This document shows positions 5,202 through 60,428 of a stretch of 64,000 bases of DNA, piece after piece. The notes under the pieces are model-generated. The model worked only from the letters and a program-made list of their open reading frames with translations. It was not told the origin of the DNA and made no database searches. Source of the DNA: Sipunculus nudus (lineage: Eukaryota; Annelida; Sipuncula; Golfingiida; Sipunculidae); contig CM049315.1 in the NCBI GenBank assembly GCA_026874595.1, positions 35,976,164-36,040,163 of the forward strand, written 5' to 3'. Positions within the stretch are counted from its first letter, which is position 1; each line of letters opens with the position of its first letter. The translations under genes and the position numbers were made by a program.

Positions 5202-6479
5202 CAGACACCACGACAACTTCAGTAAGAATACCAACAACAAATGTTCAAACAACTCCCTACCAAGAAACATCAAGTACTGAGGGGACAACAGACGGACCTA
5301 CAACAACCATCTTCACAACAACAACGATGAAAGCAAGAAAAGCCGAAAAAGCAACGACAACTAAAAAAGCAACAAAAACCGAAAAGGCAGCAACGAGAGC
5401 AACAACAACCAAGAAAACAACAATGAGAGCAACAACAATAGAGAATACAACAACCAGAGCAACAACAACCGAGAAAACAACAACGAGAGCAACAACAACT
5501 GAAAAAGCAACAACCACGAAATCAACAACGAACGAGAAGGCAACAACAACAGAAAAAGCAACAACAGTGAGGACATCAACATCAAACGTCAAATAACCAC
5601 ACCAACATTGCAAGGAAAAACATCAACCGAGGAAGCAATAATATCAACCGTGGGAGCAAAATCAACGGAGAGAGCGACAAAGATCAAAGAAACAACAAAA
5701 AAGGACGATTTATCAACAACGCAGTTGGCTAAAACACAGGCAATAATCATGCCCAGAAGAACAAAAAACCTAGCGACCACTGATATATATGTCACAGCTG
5801 TGTATACCAGGCCAGTTGTGGACAAGACTACAGGCAAAAAGGAAGTATCAACCTTACAAATGACCACTTTCGATAAAAACACAAAAGGTGAGGAGACGAC
5901 AACCATCACAATATTATCACCAGCAGAAACAACAGCAGCTGCGAAAACGACAGATGGAAGGACGGGGCTACAAGATTCGACGGTTTCCTCGGAAATAGAG
6001 CAGACCACGTTAACAGGGACCACGGCACAAGTGGTTGTCAGAGTAGATAGTCCGAAAAAAAACACACAAAAGACAGTTCAAACCGTCGTCTCTACTCAGA
6101 ACAGTTACAACACTGACGTGGACGGATCTATTTCGAAAACACCAGATTTCGTAAAGTCTTCCAAGATTTCATCGACCAGATCAACCACGAAAGCCCAGTC
6201 ACCACGAACTACTATAAAATCTGTACCAATCAGTATATTATTAAACACTCAGGTAACCGGTCACGGGACAACCGAGAGTACAGAGAGCTTCGGGAAGGGA
6301 GGGCCTGCTGTCTCAAAGGAAATGTTAACCAAATTCCATGGTCACTCCGCAGGTAAGCATGCTTCGATTAACTCATAAGAACTCCAATTCCCCCTTTCAG
6401 GACAAAAATGTCACTATGTTGCACTTTAGTTATACCTTTATCATTTGTTTCTTCTTGATTCACCTGTGATATGTCACTT

Positions 6480-6530
<51 letters not shown>

Positions 6531-7757
6531 CATAATAACATTATGCTTACCACGTAGGCAGAATATGCCGTCACCAATCACAGAATATAAAAAATTAAAT
6601 CATTTTTTTTCGTGTAGATCAAGATAACGTAACGTCGTATAATATGTCTAAAACAAAATCCCACGCGACGTTCGGCGAGACCAGTACAACTAACTCTACA
6701 ATATCTGAGAAAACTATATGCAAACAATCCGAGACATTTAGACCCACGACAGACAGCAAACCCTTATCCAAGGAGTCCGAGAATAGAGAAAACAGAACAG
6801 GTGGTATTCCCGTAACATCGGATTCCATTACAATGAGGTATACAACATTTGACAAAGAGGCAACAAAGTCCACACAGACTGCATACGTTGCAAAGAACAC
6901 AACGGTACCAAGGCAGTCGGAATACACAACAAGTTCCATTGGGGTCTTTCAAAACGGTCAGTGATGATAATACTTTACTGTAATGTCTGTCTCGTTACAT
7001 TCACTACAAACAAACTGCTCACTGCCTTTTCTATGAATATTTTGGACATTTATTTCTATTAAATCTCATATATTATAACGGAACTGATCATTATATTTAT
7101 TCCGGAGCTGAAACCCATATGTGCATGTGTTCAAATAGCATATGTCAAATCGTACTCTTTAAATCTGTTTGTAACCTCAAAGAATAAAAAATTTACAAAA
7201 AAAATATTATAAGGCGCAAACATTAAAGATAGACGCTAATTATTCCTGGAGTTTAATACGTGCCACGACTGTCCTAGCATTTCTGCAAAGATATACGTTG
7301 TGTTTACCCGTATATCATGAAAATGTAGTTCATTATACACAATGTTATATATTGTGGTTTTGATTAAAGATCACACAAGCAAGAAGGCAGTATCAGACAT
7401 TAAAAATCATGCCTCGCCAGACCCAGCTGCCACAAGAACAGCAAAAGTATTAACAGGTATGCATGAACTTCAATTGTCTCAGTGAAGTATCATAAAGAAA
7501 ATGTAATGCAGAAAACAGCTGCGCTTAACGGTAAAAGGTCATATTATAGAGATAGTATTTACAATATCAGGTATTTTTTTGTGCATAACTAACCCAGGCT
7601 TTAAATGAATCATTTTGTTTCATCATCCGTGTCACTAATGATGTTACATTACTCTCAGAACCCATTCATATTACCAATTTTTTTGCAACTACATTACATT
7701 GAAACAATTTATGACATTTAATTTTTTCAATTAGGGAGAGACCGATTCTAGTATATG

Positions 7758-7808
<51 letters not shown>

Positions 7809-10800
7809 CTTTAATACTTATACTACATATACGGAAGTCAGATAGTCAGCTAAAGGTGTATCTTATAATAGAAATGCCGTTGTCTCATCAAATTAAATGT
7901 AAATACGGATTTTTCCATCTGTGTATGTGTAAAGCTGATAAAGACCTAGCCCTAAATGCAATGTTACTTAGATTGTTTCGTCCTGAACTATACGAATAAG
8001 AAGCAAAGCAATGGTACAACCTTAAATAAATAGAATTTATTGATCCTGTGAATATTGTATGAAATGGTAGACAGAAAAGGAATCTCAAAGTATAATAATT
8101 AGTAAACTGGCTACCGTGGTATAGTGGTAGAACACAGGACTTAAGCCGAGAAATCGTGAGTTCGAAACTTTTCCATTTTTCACGATCAGTCTCCACCCAA
8201 ACTGTTCAGGCTCATTTGGAAGGCCATGCCCAAACGAGTGCGCCTTTCGGGGGATCCTCCTTGGAATGACCTAGCAATGGGGGACGATCACACAACTATG
8301 GCCAGCAGGCGCAAAAGTTACCGGGCCTGGTTAACACCAGGATATAAATCAAGAGGAAACGTGTTACGTATTCTGAAACTGGGTATTCTGCAGGTGGACA
8401 AACCTAGTTAAGCTAGTATTAAAATTTACGTGGTTACCTTCAAATAAAACAATAAGAGATATTCATAATAACAATTTGCATCTGTGTTCTCAGACTCATC
8501 TACCAAGCCTGAATCGCTCGGTGTGACAGCTGAAACATTGAGAGAGATCAATAGCAATACAGGTAATACGTTCTAATAGCCTCAATGCTACAACAGCATT
8601 TCTGTTGGACCTTCCTACAATCATTAGAATCAAATTAACGAACAACTTTTCAATTTTCCATTAGATATGTTTATTATCAGTGTGTATTGTCTTTTATTTT
8701 TGAACGAACTCTTTTTATCATCCGCTTCATTCTAAAATGCTAAAACCGATATCATATGCCATCACGATTTGTAATGTTTCAATTTGCCTTGTTAGTAATC
8801 CTTGTATAAAGAAAGAAAATCATACAGTGTATCGATATGAAAAACAAATGTACGATGACATTAATGGCTAAGGAGAATCAAACTGTCTCAATCAAAACAG
8901 AATAATCACAGCTTTAACCTGGCATAATAAATATATAGAAGTGATTCATAAAGACCTAGTTTTAGATTAGAAGTGAATCTGAATATATTCCACAGAACAT
9001 AGGATAGTGGTAGGAATATTCATTATACTGAATGAACAGTTATATTATTCTTAAAGAATACTGATTAAATATACCTTAAATCAGCTTTGGAATGAAAACA
9101 TTTCTTTTAATGCTTGATATGATATCTACCAATAGCTTGCTCCTATGGAAAACTTTATAATATTTGTGCGTTTGATAGACCTTTGAGAAGGCGGATTATA
9201 TCTAATGAAATTTATGTTTGGGACACATATATCTCAGTATATTTGGGCCATATCCGAAACGAAGGTACAGAAAATAAAATTTAAAACTTGAACCAATAAA
9301 AAGTAATACGTAAGCCAGATATTGTTGATATGGAAAACGCTTGGTTTTGAATAGTTTGTTAGAAATTTTCGCTATCACAGTAGCACCATGACGGTAGACG
9401 GAACTTTAGATGCATAGGTCCAACTGCTGTAAAATCTTTGATAAGCTCTATCAACATTCTGGTCTATATCTTATTTCTTTTTTAAGGAAAAGAAAATATT
9501 AAATCTCAACACGTCTTTAATGGTATCAATGAAATTTTTTTTTATTAATGATCAATATATTCTTTTTTTACAATAGAAACATGGTATATAGGGACAAAAT
9601 AGGGAAAATTTGCATTTCCAATGGTTTTATAAATGAAAAGGCGAAAGAGTGATAAAACACTTCTGTCTGCATACCTTTAATGATCCGTGGATACAGATAA
9701 TGAATGTGATTACATTAGACACCTGCATGTAGTAACAAATGATCGCAATTTTATTTTCTTTAATGCGAAGACTTTGTTATTAATATATGCGGCTGTGAGC
9801 CAGTGATTTTTACCCGTAAAATAAGGTTGTTGTATTTCCGAATAGCCGCACCTAGAAAATTTATTCCTTTTTTCAAGATTTCCTGATGGATGTGATAACG
9901 ATATCAAGCAGTGTTGTTCTGTCGGGGCTCGTCGTCCTGTCTCTCGCCGTCTTAATGGTACACTGGAATGCTAGAAGAGACAGACGCAGAGCCGAAAGGA
10001 AACAAATTAGGATGAGGCGACGGTTACGTCCCCTTCGAGTCAAAGCGGCGAAAGATGCATCAAAAGTGGACACCACAGAATCCCAGACGAGGAATGCCAC
10101 GGAGACTTCAGGTATTGGAATATCAAAAAATTACCTTGGATTGTCATAAAACTAGCGGGTCAGTCTATTGTTAATACTCAAAATTCTGATTCAGCGACTC
10201 CACTCCATGAATTTATTTTTCGAATTTGAATAGAAAATAAGTGATATGGTAGCTCGTGATAAAAAGCATCGCCTTTTTTTGAATATTTATTGCTCCTAAA
10301 ATTATGTTATATTGCTCATTGAGCATTCTTTTTGGCTTCTCCGGGAATATCTAATCACATGATCTTAATAAGTAATAGTAAAATTAACAAAGAGCCAAAG
10401 AATAAATAATCATCTGGACATTTAAATATCGGAAAGATTTAACACTGTTCGGTTCATTCACAACGTTTAACTGAACATTGTAACATTATATCTTCAAAAT
10501 CTTAAACTAGGTCCCACTGGCTAATTGTTGTAAATAAGATTGCTACAAATCCCTTTCTTCTTTTTTTTCCATGGTGATGAATACATATTTTTCTTCGGCT
10601 AATTAAACTAGAATAATGCTACTCAAACACAAATATACCTGTCATCTGAAGAATTTTTAAGCAGTCAACAGATTTCTCAGTCATGGATTCCTTGATCGTC
10701 TTTGAACTTAAATGCATAATCTCAAATTATGTTGGCCGCTGTACAACAAAGACGTGAGCGATATCTGACAGACTTTTATTTTGTGTTATCTGCCTTAATA

Positions 10801-12053
10801 CAGGCTGTCATGTCACAAAAGATATCCTCAGGATTATTCATCTGAGATAATATTACTTGTAATTTTAAAAATTGAGAGTCGTGATAGTTTTCCGTCATGT
10901 GGTAATAGTTGCCATTGTGCTTGCTAGCTATTTGTGTCTAACGTTTCTCACTGATCAGCACTATCCTGGTCAGTTAACACTGTAGATATTTCAGAAATGA
11001 TATGATTATTAAATATGCAGAATCTTAGCCTTTCTACATTAGATTTCTAGATTCGGATGAAGCTCGACTCTATAACGTGGCTGTAAAGTGATTTGTCTCA
11101 TATAACATTTCTCTTCCAGGCTTGAAAATAAATTGACACTTTCAGGCTTAATGTACTTTGAAAAATAGAGATTTCAGTAATCATACGATTATTAATTAGG
11201 AGGAATTTGGATCTTTTCTGTATTATAGATAGATATTTTTGACGCTTGACTCTTCTGATTTCACATTTCTCTTCCAGGTTTGAAAATGAATTGGCACTAC
11301 TCAACTTGATACAATACGAATCTTTTAAAAAAAAAAAAACGAAACATTTAACAAAACTTACATAATTATGAGTTCATCCAGTGTAAGGTATCCATTCCGT
11401 AAAGTCAAATACTATTAATATGCTTTGGTCAGAGTTATAGCAATCTGTCATGATGAATTATTTTATCACTTACTTAGACGATAATTATCTCATTACCAAT
11501 ATTATTTTTTTTCTAAACCAAACCGGCTTTCATTCATTGTTCCATATATACAAACTACACTGCCTGAGACATCAATTGATGATTGTTACATGATGTGCTA
11601 AAGATTATTTTCAAATCTGTAGAGTAGAATCATCCTAAATAATCTCTCTCTCTCTCATTTACTAGAAGTCGGTAATATGGTTATAAGCTGCACCTAGCTT
11701 TATTAAACTATATTAACCAAATCTAATAGGAGAGAAACGGCTGAAGGATTCTTGAAGTGTGTTGCTTGTTTGTAGGGTGAGGGGCCATTGGTAACTTATC
11801 CTTTAAATGCTATCAATTCATCAAATCCTCGGATGAACGTAACGTGGATATTCAATTTTCGCACACATATCGTTTCAGAGAACCCATGTCACGCTGCGCT
11901 TGAGACACAACACACGATGCTGAGTGTCTACTCAGGCGTGTCCTACAGGTGAATGTGCAAGTGTACGTCTACCCACAGCTTTCGTCAGAATTCGGACACT
12001 GTATATATGGAGTGTCAGCTCCTCCATACAAGGGAAACTCAGATGATTTATAG
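5195..12053 (+). pseudogene. Orphan 3' copy of the kringle-mucin gene, truncated and frameshifted
   Basis: This copy starts abruptly inside the Thr-rich exon at the duplication junction. It has no promoter, signal peptide, kringles or splice acceptor of its own. Exons: 5202-6352 (Thr-rich, partial), 6618-6956, 7370-7456, 8494-8562, 9878-10111, 11989-12053. Splice sites and phases are intact downstream. In the Thr-rich exon a run of four A in the right copy (53945-53948) is three A here (5591-5593), which shifts the frame into TAA at 5594-5596. The rest of the exon is open in the shifted frame to the donor at 6353. A dead by-product of the tandem duplication is the simplest reading. A single-base assembly error in an A-run is possible, but the loss of the 5' end is not explained that way. 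Confidence 0.75.
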
Positions 12054-12238
12054 ATCATGAAGAATTGCTGACACACACTGGTCAAATATTGATAATGATT
12101 CCCCATCACGTACCTTAAAATGATTTTTTTCCGTTTGGAGGTTGTCCTTACGTTAACAAATCATTCACTTTCACCGAGACCAAATGATTTTGCAAGCTTA
12201 CTTTATCTGAAATGTTAATTCCTTTGTTTTAATGTTTA

Positions 12239-12289
<51 letters not shown>

Positions 12290-13022
12290 CTAATATATGT
12301 TCCCATGTCATCGCAACTCCGTTGTATGACATTGAATCTTAAGTTGATACATGAACTCTTTGAAAAAAAAATATTTAATGCGTCTTTATCTTGCTTAAGA
12401 ATAATAAAATCATGGAAAATATATTTATTCGAGTTTTCTCCTCTTATTTTCAAAGGGATTACCCCAGTTTAATAATTGTTGTGTATTGCTTGTTGCATGA
12501 TTTACGATCGGTCCCAGGGGGTTTCTTATGGTTTATGGCAATCTTGTTTAAATTACAGACGGTTCACTTTCGACTTCGGGTAATGTGAGTGAATACAAGC
12601 AAGAAGACAATGGGTAGGGTGATCGACGGTTTTGAATTAATAATTCTGCTCAGTGTATCGAATGGTGTTTCGATTTATTGCGCATCATTAATAAAGAAAT
12701 CTGAGTCCGGATATTTTATCTACTTGGATTTTGTTTTCAATAGGACTAATCATTTTTTTAATATTTCAAAATGTCTTGACTAAACATAAAAATTACAACC
12801 TGAACAGACACGCCTGAATATCTTACCCTTTCCTATGGGTGCTTTGATATCCTGCATACAATACAAACGTCAAAGTGCGTGTAAGAGGAATATCATTTAC
12901 GAATTTTACATAGAATATACTACGTTATATACATAAAATTGAAACACTTTCAAATGCATTAAGAAATTGATACATTAGGCCATGAGATAATAGAGATACT
13001 CCAGTCAGGATCTTGATAACAA
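7814..13022 (+). repeat. Tandem duplication, copy 2
   Basis: This is nearly identical to 1-5201. It continues past the breakpoint into sequence (from 13023) that also follows the right-hand copy near 61360, so the ancestral order is retained at this end. It holds the stalk exon 8494-8562, the membrane exon 9878-10111 and the tail exon 11989-12053. Confidence 0.95.
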
Positions 13023-45811: not shown

Positions 45812-47178
45812 ATGGCCTTCAAGCAAGGTATGTGTAGGTTTACCTTATTAATACACATACCGCATTAATTGTCTTTCCGAATGGTTGTGGACTATGAGTG
45901 GAGAACATTTATAGGATGATACACCTTTTCTAGAGACGCTAGTAATAATGTCAAGCTCCCATAAGTAATAAAGGAAACATATTAACTTATCCTTTTTGCT
46001 CTTCGAGGTCTTCCCTGGTCATTTCTTACTACCGAATATCTCATTATTAAATCCGACTGTTTATGTGTCCTCGAATATGCCAGTCTGAACAAAGGGTGCA
46101 CTGTAGGTTGCTCTTCATGGAGACGGTAAAAAGTATCTCGGAACGAATCGACATTAGAGGAGCCAATGGAAAGTACATTGGTCAAAATAAACACAATCAG
46201 GTTCATGCCTACATGTTATTGTCTTATGTTTTGAACCACAGATTAAAGAAAATTTGGGAACATATATTTATATATTAACATTTACCTAACAAGAGGAGTT
46301 TAACGTTACTCATGTCTGGATATTCTGTAAGACCAGGTTGGAGCGTTTATCTATGTACAACAAAGCGTGTCAGACGTTCAATTAGTGAGGCATAAAATCA
46401 AGCCGTGTTGGGGACGTTTTTCTAATATTGGTAACAGTGAGTCTGGTATATAAAGTAACATACACTGAAAATGTCAATATTAAAGCATATACTTTTCAGA
46501 TATTCAGCAAGGCTGAATGCTTAGCTGAATTAAAGGTTCCTTCGACAATGGGAACATGGCTCCCAGCGTGCTCAAATTCATGCATTTTGCAAATAGACCT
46601 TGGGTATATATCAAGTGACCTTATTCTACATCCAGCTGCTACCATTCTGCCCATCTGACCTTCTGAGTGTAAAAATCATGTTCTTTCACAAAGCTTGCAG
46701 AATATAGGTCACAGTGACACTTTTACTGGTTTTTACAATAACCTCCCTGAATCTTCATCTTATTAAAATTTTCTAGGTCCCACTGTAATCAATATTGCAA
46801 ATCTGCCGTTTAGGGTGCTCAAATCATAACTATTCACTGACATTGTAGAAATATTACAATGTTTCATGAAGCGGGTTTTCTCCATGTAATAATGGTATGT
46901 TACAAATCCGCTTTGACAACCAGACCCAACATTTTTATACACACGGCTTTCAAGTTCTCATTCGTTATATCGATTCGTTGAGTTGGATCGAGATTATTCG
47001 GAGTCAAATGATCACATTTAATACGATACACTTCAGTAGTTAACATATGATTGCCAATGATTAGGAATTCTTATATTTTCATTGTGCTCTGTTTTAACGA
47101 AATTGCTCATTGCTCATTCATTTGCAGCTTCTATTTTTGGCGTCTTTGTGGCTGTGATGGGTCTATATCTGACAGATG
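45812..47178 (+). CDS. Signal-peptide exons 1 and 2 of the kringle-mucin gene
   Basis: The start ATG is at 45812. Exon 1 codes MAFKQ and ends at 45827 before a GTATGT donor, phase 1. Exon 2 (47128-47178) follows a TTTGCAG acceptor and ends before GTATAC, again phase 1. Joined, they read MAFKQASIFGVFVAVMGLYL followed by TDG. This is a short basic start then a hydrophobic core, as in a signal peptide, and it leads straight into the first kringle cysteine. I chose this start because it is the nearest upstream ATG with a phase-1 donor whose product is a secretion signal. The exons are too short for ORF scans. Confidence 0.7.
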
Positions 47179-50100
47179 GTATACAATTTATGAATAAATA
47201 AAAACATCTTATACTAATATATGTAATTAGCCACGTTATGTAAGATTTAATTTTGGGAAACGTATCTAGCATTAATAATGAATTTATCATGACACTCTGT
47301 GCGTAATTTCAGCTGTATAGTCTCACTTTTTATTTCATGATCAGGAATGTAAACCTATCATCCCGATATTATTTTTTTTTAAATTATTCCTCAACTACCT
47401 GAATAATAGGCCTAATTTCTAAAGTGCCTAGTTATTTGTTTCTAGGCATAGTTACTTTACGGATGTCGGATATACACTATAAAAATACCTAAAAAATATG
47501 CCGACCATGTCAAGATAACAATTTCGAAAACAATGGACAGAGTGCAATATCGGCTTTCATATGTAAACGTATGTAGATTGCGTCGGGTGAGAAATATTGT
47601 CATCCAAAGTCACATTTACGGTATATGCAGAACGTAGGAACACTTGGGCGGATATCAATAAAAACATTTTTTTTTCTGACTGACCATTTTAATATAATAT
47701 TTCAACAAATTTTAACGAATCGTTTCGTAAGGGTGCAAATACACAATTATGGGGAGAGAATACGCTGGGACAGTTGACACAACAGTGACAGGTGATAAGT
47801 GTCAGCGCTGGGCTGACCAGTACCCTCACAGACACTCGACGCATCTGGAAGAACTACCGGATGAGACGCTCCCGGACGCAGCCAACTTCTGTCGTAACCC
47901 TGACAACAGAGAATCAGGCCCCTGGTGTTACACTATGAACCCTAAAATCAGGACTGAGTCGTGCGATGTCCCTATGTGTGGTAAGAAAATAAGGGATGAT
48001 CATATCCCCAGATTCCATCCAATGATTAAATCCCCCGTTAAATATGGTAAGCGGAATAATATTTTTAACATTATTTGAATTAAATTCAATGTATTATATT
48101 TGTTTATCAAGTTATTAAGAAATGTGAAAAGCACCAAAAATTAAGCCCTGTGAACATTGTCACATCGATCGATTGTTATAAAATATTTGATCAAAGTTGG
48201 TAATGTAACAGAATGGTAGCTTAGCTCATCCTAAATGATATTCTAAAAATATTTTTTTAAAGTTTTAACCGAATGGACAGGACATTTTTTATATTTATTA
48301 TGCTTTAGCTCAAGCTTTGACTATTACGAAATAATTAATATTTTTATTGCTTGCAGAATGTTATTACACGGAAAGGGGAACCAACTATCTTGGTACCTTG
48401 AATATATCCGAAAAAGGATATTTTTGTCAGGATTGGATCAAAGACCTGCCACATGTTCATCTGGATAAGAAAGATGAAATGTTCCCCGAAAAATCGGTAG
48501 AAAAAGCCAAGAACTATTGCAGGAATCCGACAAATGATGTTCGACCTTGGTGTTACACAGAATACATACTTGAACGAAAAAACTTTTGCGACGTCTCAAT
48601 ATGCCGTGAGTATTTAAAAATATATATAAATATTAATTAATATATATATAAATATAAATATTAATTTATATATATAAAATAAAAATAGACCAAGACCTCG
48701 AGCCACAAAGGCACAACTGGGTCTAAAATTTTAGACCGCCTATAACGGGACGTAGCATGGTAAACCAACGATCCGTCCGTCCGTCCATCTGTATGTCCGT
48801 CGGTTTACTTTTAGTGTCGCCCCGATAACTTAGCAATAGATTATCCCGCCCGAGTTCGAATTTGGGTAATATCCACATATATTTAATAAGGTCGGAGGTT
48901 AATGGGCTTCTTTATGGCTGGAATAATCCATTGATAAGTAGTTTCGTAAAAATCCACCAAAGCTCCGGTAAATTATCGTGGCGACACTAAAGGTGAACGG
49001 ACTGACACAAGGTAATACCTTCAGTTCGATTCCTTGCAAAATCCGTACATATTAAAGCGGTCAGAGATCACCAGACTTCGGTGTGGTTGTTTCACCAAAT
49101 GAAGGACGGATATACATTGAACTCATTATAAAAAAAAATCTATATATTAATAGCGTAGGGCGAATTTTGTAATTTTTCTCTAATACTCTTGTACGGATGA
49201 CCGTGATTTTTGACATACATACGCTCTGGGTTTGAAATATAAGCGTATTACGTGCATAATTAATAACTTAAAATTTAACACCCCCAAAGTTTTTAACATA
49301 TAATATTGACTTAAAATGTTTTAAAAATCGAGGTTTTTGTCTCATTCCTGCAGTAACACATGTAAAATTCCTGTAAAATATTGATTTAATACGTTCTAAC
49401 TGGTATTAGTTTCTTTACATGCATATGCAATCTCATTTCAATAATGTTTATGTAATACTTTTTTTTCAACGCCTTTGTTTTCTCATTCAGTATCTATGCT
49501 TATTGCGTATAAGTCATGGCCATCATAGTTACTATTTTCACAAATGAAACTGGTATTTCTGCATTAACTTCTAAGGTCTTATTTTTAATGTATATATGAT
49601 ATTGTGGATCAGTTTCTCATGTCACATGGCACATGTGTAAGTGACAATTTGTCAAAGAAGAACCGGACCACATGTTAGGCACTGGCTTGGGGCGATCGTG
49701 TGCGACTGTACGCAGTTCCGAAACATGTTCCGAAAGATTTTTATCCATAACACCATACAAATAATGGATCTATATATAAACAGCATACCGCGATTTATGT
49801 GATTTTCCGTATCTCCAGATTTCCGATACCACCGTCCGGACTGTCGTATTCGCCCCAAACCGTGCGTAATTGCTAGTAGTTTCTCATATGAATTACATTT
49901 TTATCGACATTCACGCATATGTAATGAGATCAGGTATCACAAGGTCTGCGACGGGCGTATTATGCTCTAATTGCGGTGCTCTTGTTTTATTTTATGGTCT
50001 ACCACAATATTAATATGATTTGATATTCTATCAGTGTTACAATGCACAAAAATTCCTGTGCATTTCAGCATGCTCTAACGACGTTCTAGGAACAAAATAT

Positions 50101-52347
50101 CAAGGAGACATAGCTCAGACACAAAGCGGCCTCACTTGTCAAGAATGGTCGTCACACAGTCCTCACCGTCACTCTGTAAATGCTGACAGCTCGATGAGCA
50201 ACAAATGTCGAAACCCCACGGCGAGTGTGGACGGGCCTTGGTGTTATACCATGGACCCGTTAGTCAAGTCAGAAAGCTGTGGTGTACCGTCATGTCGTAA
50301 GCTTTATTTTCCCAAAAAGTAATGTGTTGGTTAAGGTACTTAATTAAGCAGGGGTCAAAATTCCCTTTCTCCCCAGCGGCCCTGAGGCATGTACTAAAAT
50401 CTATGAATCATCCGCTGTGACTTTTTTATGTACGAGTAGAACCCTTAACCCCTTAAATCCACTACGTAAAATTATCAGAAATTTTTACTGGCCTCGTTAT
50501 TGAATTGTTAGACCGTCAAACGTTTTTGAAAGTTTATTAAGCTATAGTCACCTGGGAGAAATGCTATCCCTTTTGTTCAGAGAAGTTTGGAAATCTGACT
50601 CTATATACGAAATTGAGAAATTTTTGTAGTTTGCACCACAGGTGACATTTTTATTCATTGATACTTTTGAGGAAATTGGCTGTTATGAAGCGCCGCTGCA
50701 GTGGTAGCGTAATGGAGCTTACTTATTCAGAAGCAGCTCATGGAAGACGTTTTCTATCATTTGACTCTTGGCATACATTGTGCGTTGTAATATGATTTAT
50801 AACATATATATGTAACACACATATATGTTGTATATTGTTATTTAAGACCGACAACTGACTTCCTGGGTAATTTTCCATCAAAAGCATCGCTCATACTACA
50901 CTCTTTATCCACTTAAAATAAAAAAAAAAATGGTAGAAATTGTGAAATAATAAAATATAAATCTTGTCCTTTTATATTTGTTTGAAGACTTCAGGAAAAT
51001 TCGGACTCTGGTGTATGAAGGAGACATAACAGGTTTGTATTCAGTACGACTACACATGTTCATCACACATAATAAAAAAAACCTAGCCACATTTTGAGTA
51101 TTCATTGGACTTCTGGGTGGCCTTTTGATTTTATGTGCTTGAGAAACTATAGGGTAAAGGTTATAAAAAGTGTACTTGTTATATTTTGACTATACTGCCT
51201 TAAGGATTTCCGCCTTCTAATGATGCCCAGACCTTTCTTTTACCATTGCTTTCGGTGCACGATAACTAACTGCGTTTACCCAGTCAGCCTAATTTGGTAG
51301 TCCAGGTTAACACTTACTAAAGTTTTAAATTTCCCTGTGACGCAAAGTCTGCCATTATTCCGTGGCCTCTCGTCCGTTTAGTCTTTCAAGGAAATGGCTA
51401 AACGGATTTGTCAAATATTTGTAAAACAGGACAATAAACCTCGACAGTTTACCCACCCTAGGATAATTATCCACCCGACAATTATCCCGTAAGACAATTA
51501 CCCCGGTAATTGTCCGATGGCCTGTTTGTACGTACGTTTGGTCAGTGATTCTAGGGTGTTTAAGTTTTGTTTGTTAGGCATAAAAAATGTTTAATAAGTA
51601 TTTTTGAATGTAAGCATAACGTTAGCATTCTTAAAAATTATAACTTTTTCAAACTTTCATAGAAAAAAATTAAATGAAGTGAACTGATGATCATTCCAAT
51701 GAGTTCATATGGAACTATTTGTATATATCTGCGTGTGTGTATGTATGTATATACATATGTTTTTCTGTAATAATATGTCACCCGGATATTATTGCCTTGC
51801 CATATATTTAGTTCTCAAACCAATATGCACTTGAGCAGAGGTATATCTTTATGAGGTAATCTACCTAGAGACCTTGTGTTTTCACGTAACTGTTGTTATG
51901 TTTCTAAATTCTTTGGAAACTGGTAACAGGTAAAGAATGGTTGTTTGGGTCCTTGTGCATCTTGTTTCGGTCCATATTTCTAAAGCTTATTTTTCAAAGA
52001 ATGTAAAGCTGATATACTGGGAGAAGATTATCGAGGAACCCAGACTAGGACCGTCAGTCTTAAGACCTGTCAAAGATGGGACACACAGTACCCACACTCA
52101 CATCCTTACACGGACGCCAAAAACTTCCCAGATGATTCTATAGAGGAAGCGAGCAACTTCTGCAGAAACCCTGACAAGGCACCTACAGGGCCGTGGTGTT
52201 ACACGACCGACCCAGACACTGAACTAGAAACCTGCAACGTTAAAGCATGTGGTGAGTTGGACTGCAAAACCTCAACTAGTCATGGCGGAAGGCTAACATT
52301 CCAACTATTTGCTTATGAATGCTCGGCTAATTTGCAGCTGTCAAACA

Positions 52348-52394
<47 letters not shown>

Positions 52395-52525
52395 TGTGTG
52401 TATGTGTAGGTAAAGAGAAAGAGTGACACCATTCAGATAGACTAACTTGTTTATTAAACACGAGCTTTTGAAGCGCACAGGCTTCTTCATCAGATGACCA
52501 CACAGGTGACGCACACACCCTCCCT

Positions 52526-52557
<32 letters not shown>

Positions 52558-54836
52558 CCGTTGGTCCCGCAAGAAACTGTCGCAAGCGTGATCTAGGCTA
52601 TGAAACATACAGTGAGTGATACTGGAAATACCAAACAAGTCCCGGTGGTTTTGTAATACATGCATGTTCTGACGTCTTCATATCATCTAAGATTGTGCAT
52701 ACAGTTGCAAGGTGTCGTGGGATTTCTTTTATATCGTGTTACTCAGGCTACAATATATGAAGTGTGACCCATTCCTTACATTTCGTTAGAAATATCTATA
52801 GAACAGCATGACTGCAGCCGTTCTTGTATAATACGAATGGCCAATTGTTTTTTTGTGTTTTGCATTTTGTCAAACATTTTGCAGGCTGCAAGAAGACACG
52901 CGCTGGGATCGATTATGCTGGGAAAATCTCTAGAACTAGGTCTGGATTTACCTGCCAGAGATGGACCGACGTTACCCCGCACGAACATAACCACACGGAT
53001 GCAGAGAATTTCCCCGAATCCAACATTCCGGAAGCAGAAAACTTTTGTAGAAATCCGGATAGAAATCCAACAGGTCCATGGTGCTTTACGGTAGAATATA
53101 ATGTCAGATGGGATTTCTGCGATATACCCATATGCAGTAAGTGCAGGGGCCTGTCCTAAATAAAGATATCATAAAATGCATGGCAAATCATCATGAATGC
53201 TTTCATTATTGTACACTTAAACATAGTAATGCCTATTTAACCATGACACATATCCTGAGAACAGACGATAATGAATTATATATATGAAAATGTAAAGCGT
53301 GTTAATTCCATAATTAACTTTAAAGTGTTGCATTATATGTTACTAAATAATATTTTTTCATAATAAAAGAGCCAAAGCCCACGCAAGCTCAGGAAAAGTT
53401 GAAAGTATCAACAACGGAGAAACGCACAACTACAGAACTGGAGACAGAGAGAACGACAATTCAGACTACAACCAGTGTCCAGACATCGACTGTAAAAGAA
53501 ACTCCTTCAACAGCACAAGCGGCAATGTCAACCAAAATTACAACTCGTATAACAACAGACACCACGACAACTTCAGTAAGAATACCAACAACAAATGTTC
53601 AAACAACTCCCTACCAAGAAGCATCAAGTACTGAGGGGACAACTGACGGACCTACAACAACCACCTTCACAACAACAACAACGATGAAAGCAAGAAAAGC
53701 CGAAAAAGCAACGACAACCAAAAAAGCAACATCAACCGAAAAGGCAACAACGAGAGCAACAACAACCGAGAAAACAACGAGAGCAACAACAATAGAGAAT
53801 ACAACAACCAGAGCAACAACAACCGAGAAAACAACAACGAGAGCATCAACAACTGAAAAAGCAACAACCACGAAATCAACAACGAACGAGAAGGCAACAA
53901 CAACAGAAAAAGCAACAACGGTGAGGACAACAACATCAAACGTCAAAATAACCACACCAACATTGCAAGGAAAAACGTCAACCGAGGAAGCAATAATATC
54001 AACCGTGGGAGCAAAATCAACGGAGAGAGCGACAAAGATCAAAGAAACAACAAAAGAGGACAATATATCAACAACGCAGTTGGCTAAAACACAGGCAATA
54101 ATCATGCCCAGAAGAACAAAAAACCTAGCGACCACTGATATATATGTCACAGCTGTGTATACCAGGCCAGTTGTGGACAAGACTACAGGCAAAAAGGAAG
54201 TATCAACCTTACAAATGACCACTTTCGAGAAAAACACAAAAGGTGAGGAGACGACGACCATCACAATATTATCACCAGCAGAAACAACAGCAGCTGCGAA
54301 AACGACAGATGGAAGGACGGGGCTACAAGATTCGACGGTTTCCTCGGAAATAGAGCAGACCACGTTAACAGGGACCACGGCACAAGTGGTTGTCAGAGTA
54401 GATAGTCCGACAAAAAACACACAAAAGACAGTTCAAACCGTCGTCTCTACTCAGAACAGTTACAACACTGACGAGGACGGATCTATTTCGAAAACACCAG
54501 ATTTCGTAAAGTCTTCCGAGATTTCTTCGACCAGATCAACCACGAAAGCCCAGTCACCACGAACTACTATAAAATCTGTACCAATCAGTATATTATTAAA
54601 CACTCAGGTAACCGGTCACGGGACAACCGAGAGTACAGAGAGCTTCGGGAAGGGAGGGCCTGCTGTCTCAAAGGAAATGTTAACCACATTCCAGGGTCAC
54701 TCCGCAGGTAAGCATGCTTCGATTAACTCTTATAAGAACTCCAATTCCCCCTTTCAGGACAAAAATGTCACTATGTTGCACTTTAGTTATACCTCTATCA
54801 TTTGTTTCTTCTTGATTCACCTGTGATATGTCACTT

Positions 54837-54897
<61 letters not shown>

Positions 54898-56128
54898 CAT
54901 AATAACATTATGCTTACCACGTAGGCAGAATATGCCGTCACCAATCACAGAATATAAAAAATTAAATCATTTTTTTTTTTCGTGTAGATCAAGATAACGT
55001 AACGTCGTATAATATGTCTAAAACAAAATCCCACGCGACGTTCGGCGAGACCAGTACAATCGACTCTACAATATCTGAGAAAACTATATGCAAACAATCC
55101 GAGACATTTAGACCCACGACAGACAGCAAACCCTTATCCAAGGAGTCCGAGAATAGAGAAAACAGAACAGGTGGTATTCCCGTAACATCGGATTCCATTA
55201 CAATGAGGTATACAACATATGACAAAGAGGCAACAAAGTCCACACAGACTGCATACGTTGCAAAGAACACAACGGTACCAAGGCAGTCGGAATACACAAC
55301 AAGTTCCATTGGGGTCTTTCAAAGCGGTCAGTGATGATAATACTTTACTGTAATGTCTGTCTCGTTACATTCACAACAAAAAAACTGCTCACTGCCTTTT
55401 CTATGAATATTTTGGACATTTATTTCTATTAAATCTCATATATTATAACGGAACTGATCATTATATTTATTCCGGAGCTGAAACCCATATGTGCATGTGT
55501 TCAAATAGCATATGTCAAATCGCTCTCTTTAAATCTGTTTGTAACCTCAAAGAATAAAAAATTTACAAAAACATATTATAAAGCGCAAACATTAAAGATA
55601 GACGCTAATTATTCCTGGAGTTTAATACGTGCCACGACTGTCCTAGCATTTCTGCAAAGATATACGTTGTGTTAACCCGTATATCATGAAAATGTAGTTC
55701 ACTATGCACAATGTTATATATTGTGGTTTTGATTAAAGATCACACAAGCAAGAAGGCAGTATCAGACATTAAAAATCATGCCTCGCCAGATCCAGCTGCC
55801 ACAAGAACAGCAAAAGTATTAACAGGTATGCATGAACTTCAATTGTCTCAGTGAAGTATCATAAAGAAAATGTAATGCAGAAAACAGCTGCGCTTAACGG
55901 TAAAAGGTCATATTATACAGATAGTATTTACAATATCAGGTATTTTTTTGTGCATAACTAACCCAGGCTTTAAATGAATCATTTTGTTTCATCATCCGTG
56001 TCACTAATGATGTTACATTACTCTCAGAACCCATTCATATTACCAATATTTTTTTGCAACTACATTACATTGAAAAAATTTATGACATTTAATTATTTCA
56101 ATTAGGGAGAGACCGATTCTAGTATATG

Positions 56129-56177
<49 letters not shown>

Positions 56178-59100
56178 CTTTAATACTTATACTACATATA
56201 CGGAAGTCAGATAGTCAGATAAAGGTGTATCTTATAATAGAAATGCCGTTGTCCCATCAAATTGTAATGTAAATACGGATTTTTCCATCTGTGTAGGTGT
56301 AAAGCTGATAAAGACCTAGCCCTAAATGCAATGTTACTGAGATTGTTTCGTCCTGAACTATACGAATCAGAAGCAAAGCAATTGTACAACCTTAAATAAA
56401 TAGAATTTATTGATCCTGTGAATATTGTATGAAAAGGTAGACAGAAAAGGAATCTCAAAGTATAATAATTAGTAAACTGGCTACCGTGGTATAGTGGTAG
56501 AACACAGGACTTAAGCCGAGAAATCGTGAGTTCGAAACTTTTCAATTTTTCACGATCAGTCTCCACCCAAACTGTGCAGGCTCATTTGGAAGGCCATGCC
56601 CAAACGAGTGCGCCTTTCGGGGGATCCTCCTTGGAATGACCTAGCAATGGGGGACGATTACACAACTATGGCCAGCAGGCGCAAAAGTCACCGGGCCTGG
56701 TTAACACCAGGATATAAATCAAGAGGAAACGTGTTACGTATTCTGAAACTGGGTATTCTGCAGGTGGACAAACCTAGTTAAGCTAGTATTAAAATTTACG
56801 TGGTTACCTTCAAATAAAACAATAAGAGATATTCATAATAACAATTTGCATCTGTGTTCTCAGACTCATCTACCAAGTCTGAATCGGTTGGTGTGACAGC
56901 TGAAACATTGAGAGAGATCAATAGCAATACAGGTAATACGTTCTAACAGCCTCAAAGCTACACCAGCATTTCTGTTGGACCTTCCTACAATCATTAGAAC
57001 CAAATTAACGAACAACTTTTCAATTTTCCTTTAGATAAGTGTATTATCAGTGTGTATTGTCTTTTATTTTTGCACGAACTCTTATCATCCGCTTCATTCT
57101 AAAATGCTAAAACCGATATCATATGCCATCACGATTTGTAATGTTTCAATTTGCCTTGTTAGTAATCCTTGTATAAAGAAAGAAAATCATACAGTGTATC
57201 GATATGAAAAACAAATGTACGATGACATTTAATGGCTAAGGAGAATCAAACTGTCTCAATCAAAACAGAATAATCACAGCTTTAACCTGGCATAATAAAT
57301 ATATAGAAGTGATTCATAAAGACCTAGTTTTAAATAAGAAGTGAATCTGAATATATTCTACAGAACTTGAAAACATAGGATAATGGTAGGAATATTCATT
57401 ATACTGAATGAACAGTTATATTATTCTTAAAGAATACTGATTAAATATACCTGAAATCAGCTTTGATTGAAAACATTTTTTTAATGCTTCATATGATATC
57501 TACCGAGAGCTTGCTCCTATGGAAAACTTTGTAATAGTTGTGCGTTTGCTAGACCTTTGAGAAGGCGGATTATATAAAATGAAATTTATGTTTGGGACAC
57601 ATACATCTCTGTAAATTTAGGCCATATCCGAAACGAAGGTACAGAAAATAAAATTTAAAACTTAAACCAATATAAAGTAATACGTAAGCCAGATATTGTT
57701 GATATGGGAAACGCTTGGTTTTGGGTAGTTTGTTAGAAATTTTCGCTATCACAGTAGCACCATGACGGTAGACGGAACTTTTAGATGCACAGGTTCAACT
57801 GCCGTAAAACCTTTGATAAGCTCTATCAACATTCTGGTCTATATCTTATTTCTTTTTTAAGGAAAAGAAAATATTTAATCTCCACACGTCTTAGATGGTA
57901 TCTATAAAATTTTTTTTTATTAATGATCAATATGTTCATTTTTTACAATAGAAACATGGTATATTTCTATTTCGTCAAAGCTGATTAATAACGCAATCGC
58001 TACGACACAAAATAGGGAAAATTTGCATTTCCAATGGTTTTATACCTGAAAAGGCGAAAGAGTGATAAAACACTTTCTGTCTGCATATGTTTAATGATCT
58101 GTGGATACAGATAATGAATGTGATTACATGAGACACCTGCGAAGATTTTGTTATTAATATATGCGGCTGTGAGCCAATAATTTTTAACCGTAAAATAAGG
58201 TAGTTGTATTTCCGAATAGCCGCCCCCATGAAATTTATTCCTTTTTTTTCAAGATTTCCTGATGGATGTGATAACGATATCAAGCAGTGTTGTTCTGTCG
58301 GGGCTCGTCGTCCTGTCTCTCATCGTCTTAATAGTACACTGGAATGCTAGAAGGGACAGACGCAGAGCCGAAAGGAAACAAATAAGGATGAGGCGACGGT
58401 TACGCCCCCTTCGAGTCAAAGCGGCAAAAGATGCATCAAAAGTGGACACTACAGAATCCCAGACGAGGAATACAACGGAGACTTCAGGTATTGGAATATC
58501 AAATAATTACCTTGTATAATCATAAAACTAGTCTATTGTTAATACTCAAAATTCTGAATCGGTGATTCCACTCCATGAATTAATTTTTCGAATTGGAATT
58601 GAAAATGTGATATGGTAGCTCGTGATAAAAAGCATCTCCTTTTTAAATATTTATTTCTCCTAAAATTGTGTTATATTGCTAATTTAGCATTCGTTTTGGC
58701 TTCCCCGGGAATATCTAATCACATGATCTTAACAAGTAATAGTCAATTTAATAAAGAGCCAAAGAAAAAATAATAATCTGGACATTTAAATATCGAAAAG
58801 ATTTAACACCGTACGGTTCATTCACAACGTTTAATTGAACATCGTAACATTATATCTTCAAAATCTAAAACTAGGTCCCACTGGCTAATTGTTGTAGATA
58901 AGATTGCTACAAATCGCTTTCTTTTTTTATATTTTTTATTGGTGATGAATACATATATTTCTTCGGCTAATTAAACTGGAATAATGCTACTCAAACACAA
59001 ATATACCTGTCATCTTAAGAACTTTTGAGCAATCAACATATTTCTCAGTCATGGTTTCCTGGATCGCCTTTGAACTTATATGCTTAATCTCAAATTGTGT

Positions 59101-60428
59101 CGGCAGCTGAACAACAAAGACGTGAGCGGTTTCTGACACACTTTAATTTCGTGTCATCTTCCTTAATACAGGATGTCATGTCACAAAGGATATCCTCAGG
59201 ATTATTCATTATTAATATTACTTGTAATATTGAAAATTGAGAGTCGTGATAGTTTTCCGTCTTGAGCTAATAGTTGCAGTTGTGCTTGCTGTCTATTTGT
59301 GTCTAACGTTTCTCACTGATCAGCAATATCCTGATCAGTTAACATTGTAGATATATCATTAATGATATGATTATTAATTATGCAGAATCTTAGCCTTTCT
59401 ACATTAGATTTCTAGATTCTGTTGAAGCTTGACTCTATAACGTAGCTGTTAAGTGATTTGCCTCATATTACATTTCTCTTCCATTCTTGAAAATGATTTA
59501 AAACTTTCAGACTTAACCTTGAAAAATTGGGATTTCAGTAATCATATGATTATTAATTTTGAGGATTTTGGAGCTTTTCTGCATTACAGATAGATATTGT
59601 TGACGCTTGGCTTGATAATGTAGTTGTCAAATGATTTGTCTGATTTCACGTTTCTCTTCCAGGTTTGAAAATGAATTGACACTACCCAGCTTGATACAAT
59701 ATGAATATTTAAAAAATAAACGAAACATTTAACAAAACTGACATAATTATGAGTTCATCCAGTGTAATGTATCCATTCTGTAAAGTCAAATACTATAAAT
59801 ATGCTTTGGTCAGAGTTATAACATTCTATCATGATGAATTATTTTAATCATTTACTTAGACGATAATTATCTCATTTCCAATATTATTTATTTCTAAACC
59901 AAACTGGCTTTCATTCATTGTTCCATATATACAAACTACACTGCCTGAGACATCAATTGATGATTGTTTCATTATGTACTAAAGATTCTTTTCAAATCTG
60001 TAGAGTCGAAACATCCTAAATAATCTCTCTCCCTCTCATTTACTAGAGGTCAGTAATTTGGTTTTAAGATGCACCTAGCTTGATTAAACTATATTAACCG
60101 GATCTAATAGGAGAGAAACGGCTGAAGGATTCTTGAACTGTGTTGCTTGTTTGTAAGGGTGAGGGGCCATTGGTAACTTATCCTTTAAATACTGTCATCA
60201 AATCCTCGGATGAACGTAACGTGGATATTCAACTTTCACACACGTCGTTTCAGAGAACCCATGTCACGCTGCGCTCGAGACACAACACACGATGCTGAGT
60301 GCCTACTCAGGCGTGTCCTACAGGTGAATGTGCATGTGTACGTCTACCCACAGCTTTCGTCAGAATTTGGACACTGTATATATGGAGTTTCAGCTCCCCC
60401 GTACAAGGGAAAATCAGATGATTTATAG
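45812..60428 (+). CDS. Complete gene: secreted-side kringle x5 / mucin-like / single-pass membrane protein (13 coding exons)
   Basis: Exons: 45812-45827, 47128-47178, 47732-47980, 48357-48605, 50069-50296, 52000-52251, 52885-53136, 53370-54707, 54988-55326, 55739-55825, 56864-56932, 58254-58487, 60364-60428. The exons sum to 3,429 nt, giving 1,142 residues plus stop. Every junction has GT..AG and is phase 1, so each internal exon is a multiple of three and the reading frame never breaks. Predicted order: signal peptide (1-22), kringles (about 24-105, 107-188, 190-264, 266-348, 350-432), Thr-rich region (433-878), further stalk (879-1043), transmembrane helix (about 1049-1073), Arg-rich juxtamembrane segment and short tail. 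This is a type I membrane protein with kringles held out on a mucin-like stalk. Kringles bind proteins, often through lysine, but the ligand here is unknown. I know no named family with this order. A transcript is needed to prove the linkage and to settle the last exon. Confidence 0.8.
47732..47980 (+). CDS. Kringle 1 exon
   Basis: The 249-nt exon is phase 1 at both ends (acceptor CGTAAG, donor GTAAGA). The domain starts with Cys at 47734, before the internal ATG at 47749. It carries the kringle pattern: YAGTV, CQRW, PHRH, FCRNP, GPWCYT and a closing CDVPMC. All six cysteines are present. Asp55 of the lysine-binding site is present (NPD), but the second acidic position and the Arg-Trp pair of lysine-binding kringles are altered (KIRTESC), so lysine binding is doubtful. 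Confidence 0.92.
48357..48605 (+). CDS. Kringle 2 exon
   Basis: The 249-nt phase-1 exon has acceptor TTGCAG and donor GTGAGT. It shows CYYTERGTNYLG, FCQDW, PHVH, YCRNP, PWCYT and CDVSIC, with all six kringle cysteines. It is the most divergent kringle: the loop before PWCY reads NDVR and lacks the usual Gly and the Asp pair, so a canonical lysine site is unlikely. It lies 376 bp after kringle 1. Confidence 0.9.
48800..49000. repeat. Short inverted repeat, MITE-like
   Basis: ACTTTTAGTGTCGCC near 48810 and its inverse GGCGACACTAAAGGT near 48980 match at 14 of 15 positions, with CCGTCCGTCC before the first arm. It lies in the intron after kringle 2. No target duplication was verified. Confidence 0.4.
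50069..50296 (+). CDS. Kringle 3 exon (shortened loop)
   Basis: The 228-nt phase-1 exon has acceptor ATTTCAG and donor GTAAGC. Motifs are LGTKYQGD, TCQEW, PHRHS, KCRNP, DGPWCYT and a closing CGVPSC, with six cysteines kept. It is 7-8 codons shorter than its sisters because the segment between PHRH and CRNP, which reads NFPE..EA.NF in the others, is cut down. The ATG at 50020 lies in the intron and is not the real start. Confidence 0.9.
51455..51514. repeat. Cluster of palindromes
   Basis: 51493-51514 is a perfect 22-bp palindrome (GACAATTACC then CC-less inverse GGTAATTGTC). Nearby GGATAATTATCC is a second perfect palindrome, and GACAATTATCCCG repeats the theme. It may be the end of a small inverted-repeat element. 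Confidence 0.55.
52000..52251 (+). CDS. Kringle 4 exon
   Basis: This 252-nt phase-1 exon (acceptor TTTTCAAAG, donor GTGAGT) has no internal ATG, so a start-codon ORF search misses it and reports a wrong-frame ORF instead (51937-52143). In frame it reads CKADILGEDYRGT, KTCQRW, YPHSHP, NFCRNPD, TGPWCYTTDP and CNVKAC, with all six cysteines. The intron upstream is 1.7 kb; kringle 5 follows after 633 bp. Confidence 0.9.
52395..52520 (-). mobile_element. Possible Penelope-like element end with hammerhead-like motif
   Basis: On the minus strand CTGATGAAGAAGCC, then GCGCTTCAAAAGCTCGTG, resembles the conserved end of Penelope-like elements that carry hammerhead ribozymes. GAAGC/GCTTC can pair as stem II, but the expected GAA after stem II is CAA here, so self-cleavage is unlikely. 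It lies between a TA tract and a CA repeat (52523-52548). Confidence 0.35.
52885..53136 (+). CDS. Kringle 5 exon
   Basis: The 252-nt phase-1 exon has acceptor TTTTGCAG and donor GTAAGT. Motifs are IDYAGK, TCQRW, PHEH, FCRNPD, TGPWCFT, VRWDFC and CDIPIC, with six cysteines. Of the five kringles it best keeps the aromatic and basic wall of a lysine-binding site: the Trp of PWC, Phe two residues later, and Arg-Trp in VRW before the fifth cysteine. The second Asp of the usual DxD is replaced, so any lysine binding is inference. Confidence 0.92.
53370..54707 (+). CDS. Thr-rich mucin-like exon of the complete gene
   Basis: This 1,338-nt phase-1 exon (acceptor ATAAAAG, donor GTAAGC) is joined in frame to kringle 5 (TGC A + AG CCA AAG). 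It codes 446 residues dominated by Thr, Lys, Ala, Glu and Ser. The first half contains an imperfect repeat of about 9-10 residues built on ATTTEKTTTR; the second half is less repetitive. Such composition implies dense mucin-type O-glycosylation and an extended stalk. The unit is intact here, unlike the left copy. ORFs on the opposite strand are low-complexity shadows rich in Val or Leu. Confidence 0.88.
54988..55326 (+). CDS. Stalk exon with N-glycosylation sequons
   Basis: This 339-nt phase-1 exon has acceptor CGTGTAG after a T-run. The donor at 55327 is the less common GTCAGT; reading on meets a stop within three codons. The Ser/Thr-rich sequence contains NVT, NMS, NRT and NTT sequons and a single Cys (ICKQS). 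The left copy at 6618-6956 has the same length and frame with few changes, which supports it as a real exon. Confidence 0.75.
55739..55825 (+). CDS. 29-codon stalk exon
   Basis: This 87-nt exon lies between TTAAAG and GTATGC, phase 1 on both sides. It codes HTSKKAVSDIKNH followed by a Pro/Ala/Thr-rich end (TAKVLT). It is found only from the splice signals and the frame. The left copy at 7370-7456 keeps the length, phase and both splice sites. Confidence 0.65.
56864..56932 (+). CDS. 23-codon stalk exon
   Basis: This 69-nt phase-1 exon lies between TTCTCAG and GTAATA. It codes SSTKSESVGVTAETLREI then NSNT. The same exon occurs at 681-749 and 8494-8562 with splice sites and frame kept in all three copies. 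Confidence 0.65.
58254..58487 (+). CDS. Transmembrane and juxtamembrane exon
   Basis: This 234-nt phase-1 exon follows a long pyrimidine tract ending CAAG; the donor is GTATTG. It encodes a hydrophobic run of about 25 residues (VITISSSVVLSGLVV through LIVLIVHW). An exceptionally basic stretch follows, with about 15 Arg/Lys in 29 residues (NARRDRRRAERKQIRMRRR and on), then a Ser/Thr-rich part. The positive-inside rule puts the basic part in the cytosol. Most differences from the left copies are synonymous or conservative (Ala/Ile, Met/Ile in the membrane; Ala/Thr near the end). Confidence 0.85.
60364..60428 (+). CDS. Probable terminal exon (cytoplasmic tail), with an alternative just upstream
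   Basis: Acceptor TTCGTCAG at 60363, phase 1, gives E + FGHCIYGVSAPPYKG then KSDDL and TAG. Between the left and right copies five bases differ, and four of them are silent third positions in this frame, which is a coding-like pattern. A second phase-1 acceptor (GTTTCAG, exon 60254-60327) would instead give a 24-residue tail starting ENPCHAALETQHTML and ending at TGA. It is also open in all three copies. The two may be alternatives, and only cDNA can decide. Confidence 0.5.

What the first reader, a model, noticed from the sequence alone, without database searches (positions are those of the whole stretch)
45812..60428. A membrane-tethered kringle-mucin receptor-like protein, apparently undescribed
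Seen: 13 exons, all phase 1, giving signal peptide, five six-cysteine kringles, about 600 residues of Thr/Ser-rich stalk, one transmembrane helix and a short basic tail. Known: kringles occur in secreted proteases, apolipoprotein(a), ROR kinases and Kremen. I know of none on a long mucin stalk with no other domain. Inferred: a cell-surface or shed decoy/adhesion molecule.
Basis: partly seen in the sequence, partly recalled or inferred. Interest (0 to 1): 0.9.

Follow-up and report, generated by a model that had tools for sequence, protein, structure and literature searches.

The report
Five-kringle cell-surface receptor gene family
This animal gene encodes a predicted membrane protein with five disulphide-knotted kringle domains on a long threonine-rich stalk, and it belongs to a duplicated family that resembles, but has not been shown to descend from, a kringle membrane protein that flatworms need for temporary adhesion.

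Summary
A 13-exon gene model (45812-60327), all 12 introns phase 1 with AG/GT borders, encodes 1,145 residues: putative signal peptide, five kringles (Pfam 335 bits, no other domain), a 611-residue Thr/Ser-rich stalk (37.6% T+S), one hydrophobic helix and a basic tail. No transcript was available; conservation stands in for it. An apparently intact neighbour matches it at exons 3-8, 12 and 13 and otherwise only at repeat-like sequence; kringle dN/dS is 0.26, TM-exon 0.23. A third locus 29 Mb away has the same order.

It is not a singleton. Five kringles recur at 11 loci read on two chromosomes (five of them the broken or intact copies near the window or picked from a hit list, so not a random sample), and kringles group by position (K1, K3, K4 supported; K5 weakly; K2 not). 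None of 57 kringles has the Asp-x-Asp lysine site, so plasminogen-type lysine binding is doubtful. Best reading: an adhesion/recognition receptor, ligand unknown. Window 1-13022 holds kringle-less tandem copies of a pseudogene's 3' half.

The parts
45812..45827 (+). exon 1, start codon, MAFKQ (putative signal peptide, first part)
   Evidence: ATG, GT donor, phase 1
47128..47178 (+). exon 2, hydrophobic core of the putative signal peptide
   Evidence: 89% identical over 18 residues in the upstream pseudogene
47732..47980 (+). exon 3, kringle 1 (83 residues, six Cys)
48357..48605 (+). exon 4, kringle 2
50069..50296 (+). exon 5, kringle 3 (short form, 76 residues; K3 has this length at 4 of the 11 loci whose five kringles were translated)
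52000..52251 (+). exon 6, kringle 4
52885..53136 (+). exon 7, kringle 5
53370..54707 (+). exon 8, main Thr/Ser/Lys-rich stalk exon (446 residues)
   Evidence: 65% DNA identity to the neighbour's stalk exon over 53480-54331
54988..55326 (+). exon 9, stalk (113 residues)
   Evidence: weak protein match in the neighbour
55739..55825 (+). exon 10, stalk (29 residues)
   Evidence: no match in the neighbour
56864..56932 (+). exon 11, stalk (23 residues)
   Evidence: no match at the matching place in the neighbour
58254..58487 (+). exon 12, transmembrane helix and basic juxtamembrane tail (DRRRAERKQIR)
   Evidence: nine matches in the genome including itself, all on the same chromosome; four copies aligned
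60254..60327 (+). exon 13, end of cytoplasmic tail with TGA stop; AATAAA at 60736
   Evidence: 76% DNA match over 60244-60306 in the neighbour, whose reading frame stops earlier
1..5194 (+). 3' part of one 7.82-kb tandem unit derived from the upstream pseudogene (exon 11, TM and tail exons; no kringles)
   Evidence: four units, 99.7-99.8% identical, from -18270 to 13022
5195..13022 (+). last complete 7.82-kb tandem unit (partial stalk exon with interrupted frame, exons 9-13; no kringles)

Best explanation
It is a type I cell-surface adhesion/recognition receptor and one member of an expanded family. Five kringles, joined by single-residue linkers (one residue between the last Cys of one and the first Cys of the next), form the ligand-binding head. 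The 611-residue Thr/Ser-rich stalk, probably O-glycosylated, lifts the head clear of the membrane. One helix anchors it, and the conserved Arg/Lys-rich juxtamembrane tail holds it at the surface, perhaps through lipids or the cortical cytoskeleton. It would work like flatworm Tmed-krg1: membrane-bound kringles gripping a secreted or matrix protein, though by different binding chemistry. SHOWN by sequence: domain order, phases, exon-restricted conservation, purifying selection on kringle and TM exons, family membership. INFERRED: splicing, glycosylation, topology. GUESSED: the ligand and the adhesive role.
For: Gene model and domains. Exon-restricted conservation with the neighbour. Kringle dN/dS 0.26 over 410 codons and TM exon 0.23 over 78 codons against the neighbour. 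Same order (five kringles, T/S-rich exon, TM exon) at a locus 29 Mb away. TM/tail core RDRRR..R..IR invariant in the four aligned copies. Kringles group by position. No protease signature motif in the 254 kb of three clusters (regular expression, no positive control). Tmed-krg1 precedent.
Against: No RNA or protein data. 0 of 57 kringles carry the Asp-x-Asp pair on which lysine binding, and so the Tmed-krg1 hypothesis, relies. Homology to Tmed-krg1 was not tested: its sequence was not held; that knock-down was scored on three animals per group. Of 11 five-kringle loci of this type, the complete order was read at 3 (window, neighbour, 6.55 Mb); partial 3' modules at 4 (C1, C2, D, H); at 1 the module stands beside broken kringles (upstream pseudogene); none was seen at 3 (C3, E, F), where 3 to 7 kb downstream was read. 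The stalk is low in proline. Selection on the stalk was not tested against the neighbour; exon 9 against the pseudogene gives 1.23 on five changes. The tail end differs between neighbours.
Confidence: 0.42

Rival explanations
1. Diversified recognition repertoire: the family is an immune- or self-recognition receptor set, with kringle heads diversified by tandem duplication.
For: At least 150 kringle matches in the genome (150 scored of 350 candidates), many in tandem clusters; very recent duplications and a decayed copy beside the gene; kringles 2 and 4 evolve fastest (dN/dS 0.35 and 0.44).
Against: Overall purifying selection on the kringles (0.26); no site-wise test of positive selection was run; no signalling motif recognised in the tail; kringles keep position-specific identity at most loci, unlike a shuffled repertoire.
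Confidence: 0.2
2. Membrane-tethered decoy or growth-factor (HGF-type) modulator that is shed.
For: Kringles match plasminogen and HGF best among solved chains; long exposed stalk.
Against: No cleavage site or shedding evidence was looked for or seen; the best matches may only reflect which kringles have been solved.
Confidence: 0.12
3. PIK3IP1-like signalling regulator: an ectodomain-gated inhibitor of an intracellular kinase.
For: Kringle plus one TM plus short tail without enzyme is the closest vertebrate plan (PMC7520711, PMC4380398, passages).
Against: The tail has six sub-threshold Pfam matches at E up to 10, none over its curated cut-off and none to a p85 inter-SH2 domain; five kringles instead of one.
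Confidence: 0.1
4. Mis-joined gene: the kringles are a secreted protein, and the stalk-TM exons belong to another transcript.
For: The 3' module also exists in three extra tandem units without kringles; no transcript was available.
Against: Same order at two other loci; matching phases; exon-only conservation.
Confidence: 0.08

Closest known systems
Tmed-krg1, polyclad flatworm Theama mediterranea (PMC9229212; sections 12 and 25 and passages read)
   Same: Several consecutive kringles in a large predicted extracellular region, TM segment, no other domain named, similar size (1,357 aa in its table, 1,367 in its text)
   Different: Six kringles; no signal peptide predicted; kringles called lysine-binding by the authors; the word threonine does not occur in the text; homology untested
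PIK3IP1 / TrIP (PMC7520711, PMC4380398; passages)
   Same: Extracellular kringle, TM, no enzyme
   Different: One kringle; cytoplasmic p85-like segment that binds PI3K; no such match here
Plasminogen / apolipoprotein(a)
   Same: Plasminogen also has five kringles (recalled); best solved-structure match, 311.5 bits
   Different: No protease domain or motif here, TM anchor present, lysine-site Asp pair absent
ROR and NRK receptor kinases (PMC2772990, passages); Kremen (recalled)
   Same: Membrane proteins with a kringle
   Different: Single kringle with cysteine-rich/Ig/kinase or, for Kremen, WSC/CUB domains; none found here
Membrane mucins (recalled)
   Same: Long Thr/Ser-rich stalk, one TM, short tail
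   Different: Proline-poor stalk, no SEA domain, kringle head

Membership tests
Kringle domain proteins (Pfam PF00051) | Kringle domain above the curated cut-off with six cysteines | tested here: met
   335.4 bits against cut-off 34.3, five stretches; six Cys in each of the window's five
Plasminogen / kringle serine proteases | Trypsin-like protease domain | tested here: not met
   No Pfam protease in the product; no GDS[GA]G or [TS]A[AG]HC motif in 254 kb of three clusters; no positive control, and a motif split by an intron would be missed
Lysine-binding kringles | Asp-x-Asp anionic centre in the NPDxD loop (positions recalled; pattern visible in plasminogen) | tested here: not met
   0 of 57 kringles, the window's five included
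PIK3IP1 | Single extracellular kringle | tested here: not met
   Five kringles
PIK3IP1 | p85-like cytoplasmic segment | tested here: not met
   No such Pfam match at E up to 10
Tmed-krg1-like protein | Consecutive kringles, TM, no enzyme domain | tested here: met
Tmed-krg1-like protein | Sequence homology beyond the kringle fold | not testable with these tools
   Its sequence (ON323680) was not available to me
Tmed-krg1-like protein | Expression in adhesive anchor cells; knock-down loses adhesion | not testable with these tools
   No expression data
Membrane mucin (PTS domain) | S+T >= 40% and P >= 5% per 100 residues (recalled rule) | tested here: inconclusive
   4 of 512 windows here, 0 of 351 in the neighbour's main stalk exon, 160 of 463 in the 6.55 Mb locus
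Five-kringle family of this genome | Five kringle exons whose kringles group by position with those of other loci | tested here: met
   K1, K3, K4 and K5 of the window gene fall in their positional groups; K2 groups with three other K2s

The most novel reading that the evidence does not exclude
An undescribed, expanded family of five-kringle cell-surface receptors, in which each kringle position has kept its own identity while whole genes multiplied over at least two chromosomes, serves as a recognition or adhesion repertoire whose kringles bind something other than lysine.
Probability: 0.35. Interest if true: 0.7.

Novelty: new variant of a known kind. Interest (0 to 1): 0.5.

Why it matters
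Kringles are known mainly from blood proteases and a few single-kringle receptors. A duplicated family of multi-kringle membrane proteins without protease or kinase would show that kringles were recruited as cell-surface heads in an invertebrate lineage. Together with the flatworm adhesion protein Tmed-krg1 it suggests a testable wider class, and the missing lysine site raises the question of what these kringles bind.

Tried and rejected
Rejected: plasminogen-type protease; PIK3IP1 membership; singleton gene; chance exon set. Locus G is set aside: it is a 10-kb slice (five kringles) of a longer array on C9 with many more kringle hits on either side, and its kringles group with each other or with K2s, not by position.

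Led nowhere: the molluscan haemocyanin search gave nothing, and its control rang nowhere either, so the taxon stays open. The COX1 search, meant to name the species, gave 11 matches: nine alike on unplaced contigs, one on C123 and one fragment on C5. Only the C60 and C123 genes were read and both look bacterial; relatives of the C60 protein reach at most 58% identity, in many phyla (capped at 80 loci). An exon-like remnant in intron 5 (about 50985-51033) was not pursued. No structure was predicted: the spliced product is not a contiguous translation, and single kringles needed no fold.

Dropped or limited: loci D to H were picked from the hit list because several kringle hits lay close together, so they are not a random sample. 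The tree has 57 rows: five kringles from each of 11 loci (G included) plus K4 and K5 of the upstream pseudogene, whose K1-K3 were left out because their frames are broken. K2 does not form one group (5 changes); one K2 (C3) sits with K4s and one (C1) with K5s; the K5 group is weak (88/3). Locus C2 lacks a cysteine in K3 and in K4 and may be decaying.
Full report
WHAT IS THERE. The window lies at C10:35976164-36040163 of a 1.43-Gb assembly in 153 contigs. Thirteen exons join with AG/GT borders at all 12 introns, all phase 1, into one frame of 1,145 residues ending at TGA 60325-60327, with AATAAA at 60736. Pfam sees five kringles and nothing else at E <= 0.001. The stalk covers residues 433-1043: 611 residues, T 167, S 63, P 21, six N-glycosylation sequons. 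The only strongly hydrophobic 21-residue stretch is in exon 12. The cytoplasmic part is 74 residues with 18 K/R and 8 D/E. The signal peptide (MAFKQASIFGVFVAVMGLYLTDG) is a reading by eye.

IS IT REAL. No RNA is available, so I used conservation. A second gene lies downstream, kringle 1 to kringle 1 about 21 kb (C10:36045079-36048934, TM exon 36056049); its five kringle exons, main stalk exon and TM exon are open. Plus-strand blastn between the two regions matches exons 3, 4, 5, 6, 7, 8, 12 and 13, that is 8 of 13 exons; everything else it reports is AT repeat or one 219-bp stretch that looks like a dispersed repeat. Exons 1, 2, 9, 10 and 11 do not match at DNA level. Kringle codons give dS 0.44, dN 0.11, ratio 0.26 (410 codons); the TM exon gives 0.23 (78 codons). 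By kringle the ratios are 0.16, 0.35, 0.18, 0.44 and 0.17. The stalk was not tested this way against the neighbour; exon 9 against the pseudogene gives 1.23 on five changes. The neighbour's own tail stops earlier.

A THIRD LOCUS. At C10:6.549-6.557 Mb, on the minus strand, lie five kringle exons, then an open phase 1-1 exon of 562 residues with 35% T+S and 12-residue repeats (TTVGNPTTSSIM type), then a TM exon about 50% identical to exon 12. Order and phase are those of the window gene. Its signal-peptide exon was not identified.

THE FAMILY. The genome's kringle search was cut at 150 scored of 350 candidates. Eleven loci of this type were read: the window gene, its downstream neighbour, an upstream pseudogene (kringles 1-3 broken), B at 6.55 Mb, C1-C3 at 7.28-7.35 Mb, D at 7.81 Mb, E at 24.74 Mb and H at 39.19 Mb on C10, and F at 52.4 Mb on C5. 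Each shows five kringle exons in the stretch read. D, E, F and H were chosen from the hit list because several hits lay together. A twelfth stretch, G, is a slice of a longer C9 array and is not counted. In a tree of 57 kringles, 10 of 11 K1, 10 of 11 K3 and 11 of 12 K4 group by position (support 100/99, 97/82 and 97/88; the K4 group also holds one K2); 11 of 12 K5 group weakly (88/3, with one K2); K2 scatters. The exception in each of the K1, K3, K4 and K5 groups is G. This points to one ancestral five-kringle protein that was copied whole. The TM/tail exon has nine matches in the genome, itself included, all on C10, and a tenth weak one at 39.18 Mb (E 9e-4), 11.4 kb downstream of locus H. 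A further match on C11 has E 3.1 and is treated as chance.

HOW GENERAL IS THE STALK AND ANCHOR. Of the 11 loci, the full order was read at 3 (window, neighbour, B). At 1, the upstream pseudogene, the 3' module stands beside broken kringles. At 4 it is partial: C1 has a TM exon with an in-frame stop 12 kb away; C2 has T/S-rich frames, but the nearest TM exon is on the other strand; D has a T/S-rich frame and a different hydrophobic segment; H has the weak TM exon. At 3 (C3, E, F) none was seen in the 3 to 7 kb read downstream; in the window gene the TM exon lies 5 kb beyond kringle 5, and at H 11 kb, so this does not show absence.

THE TANDEM DEBRIS. Window 1-13022 belongs to a 31-kb array of four 7.82-kb units (99.7-99.8% identical) that runs from C10:35957893 to window 13022. 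The first unit is the pseudogene's own 3' half; the other three repeat it. No kringle match lies in the three extra units and the stalk frame is interrupted. Pseudogene and window gene are about 72 kb apart and 90-97% identical over their longest aligned blocks.

LIKELY MECHANISM. A type I membrane receptor: kringle head, extended and probably O-glycosylated stalk, anchor and basic tail. The nearest tested analogue is Tmed-krg1, whose knock-down left flatworms non-adhesive (three animals per group, double-blind); its authors state that the protein was not localised. Their lysine hypothesis fits poorly here: 0 of 57 kringles hold the Asp-x-Asp pair, and the window's five kringles are net acidic (45 K+R, 60 D+E). 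So the plan is krg1-like but the binding chemistry is probably different. The adhesive role is an analogy, not a result.

KNOWN OR NEW. Papers seen: PMC9229212 (sections 12 and 25 and passages); PMC7520711, PMC4380398, PMC2772990, PMC7333891, PMC4581086 and PMC2762978 (passages only). The last three mention other invertebrate kringle proteins: a secreted limpet mucus protein with many domains, a mussel MAC/perforin-kringle protein and an annelid one. Nine library searches listed no paper on this five-kringle family; most subscription journals are not held. Kremen, membrane-mucin features and the lysine-site numbering are recalled. I rate it a new variant of a known kind.

LIMITS. No transcripts, no species name, no proteome of relatives. 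One dN/dS method (Nei-Gojobori) on single pairs; kringle dS against the 6.55 Mb locus is saturated.

Noticed in passing
window 1-13022, continuing upstream to C10:35957893: A 31-kb tandem array of four 7.82-kb units (99.7-99.8% identical), three of them carrying only the 3' half of the gene: very recent duplication, copy-number variation or assembly artefact.
   Followed up: partly
C10:35948995-35957479 (upstream of window): Pseudogene copy of the window gene with kringles 1-3 and the stalk frame broken; kringles 4 and 5 open and nearly identical to the window gene's.
   Followed up: partly
contigs C60, C61, C62, C66, C72, C74, C75, C89 and C123 of the assembly: Cytochrome oxidase genes of bacterial type on unplaced contigs: nine near-equal matches and one cbb3-like (by eye) on C123; only those of C60 and C123 were read. 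Possible symbionts or contaminants; best relatives of the C60 protein 58% identical, in many phyla.
   Followed up: partly
window 34395-34769: Open frame with a methyltransferase domain (Pfam Methyltransf_12, E 1.6e-7), an unrelated neighbouring gene or exon.
   Followed up: no
window 19224-20072 and 20229-20960: A 337-bp tandem repeat, 2.5 copies, 90% matches, next to a 243-residue minus-strand open frame that resembles a transposase by eye; no Pfam match.
   Followed up: no
window 50985-51033: Short exon-like stretch in intron 5 (KIRTLVYEGDITG) resembling the start of a kringle; possible kringle remnant.
   Followed up: no
C10:7347234-7352798 (L035, L036): In this locus kringle 2 is nearly a copy of kringle 4 (tree support 100/99), suggesting exon duplication or gene conversion.
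   Followed up: no
C9:28894681-28948550: A long array of kringles of another type (at least 20 hits among the 150 scored); one 10-kb slice was read (locus G).
   Followed up: partly
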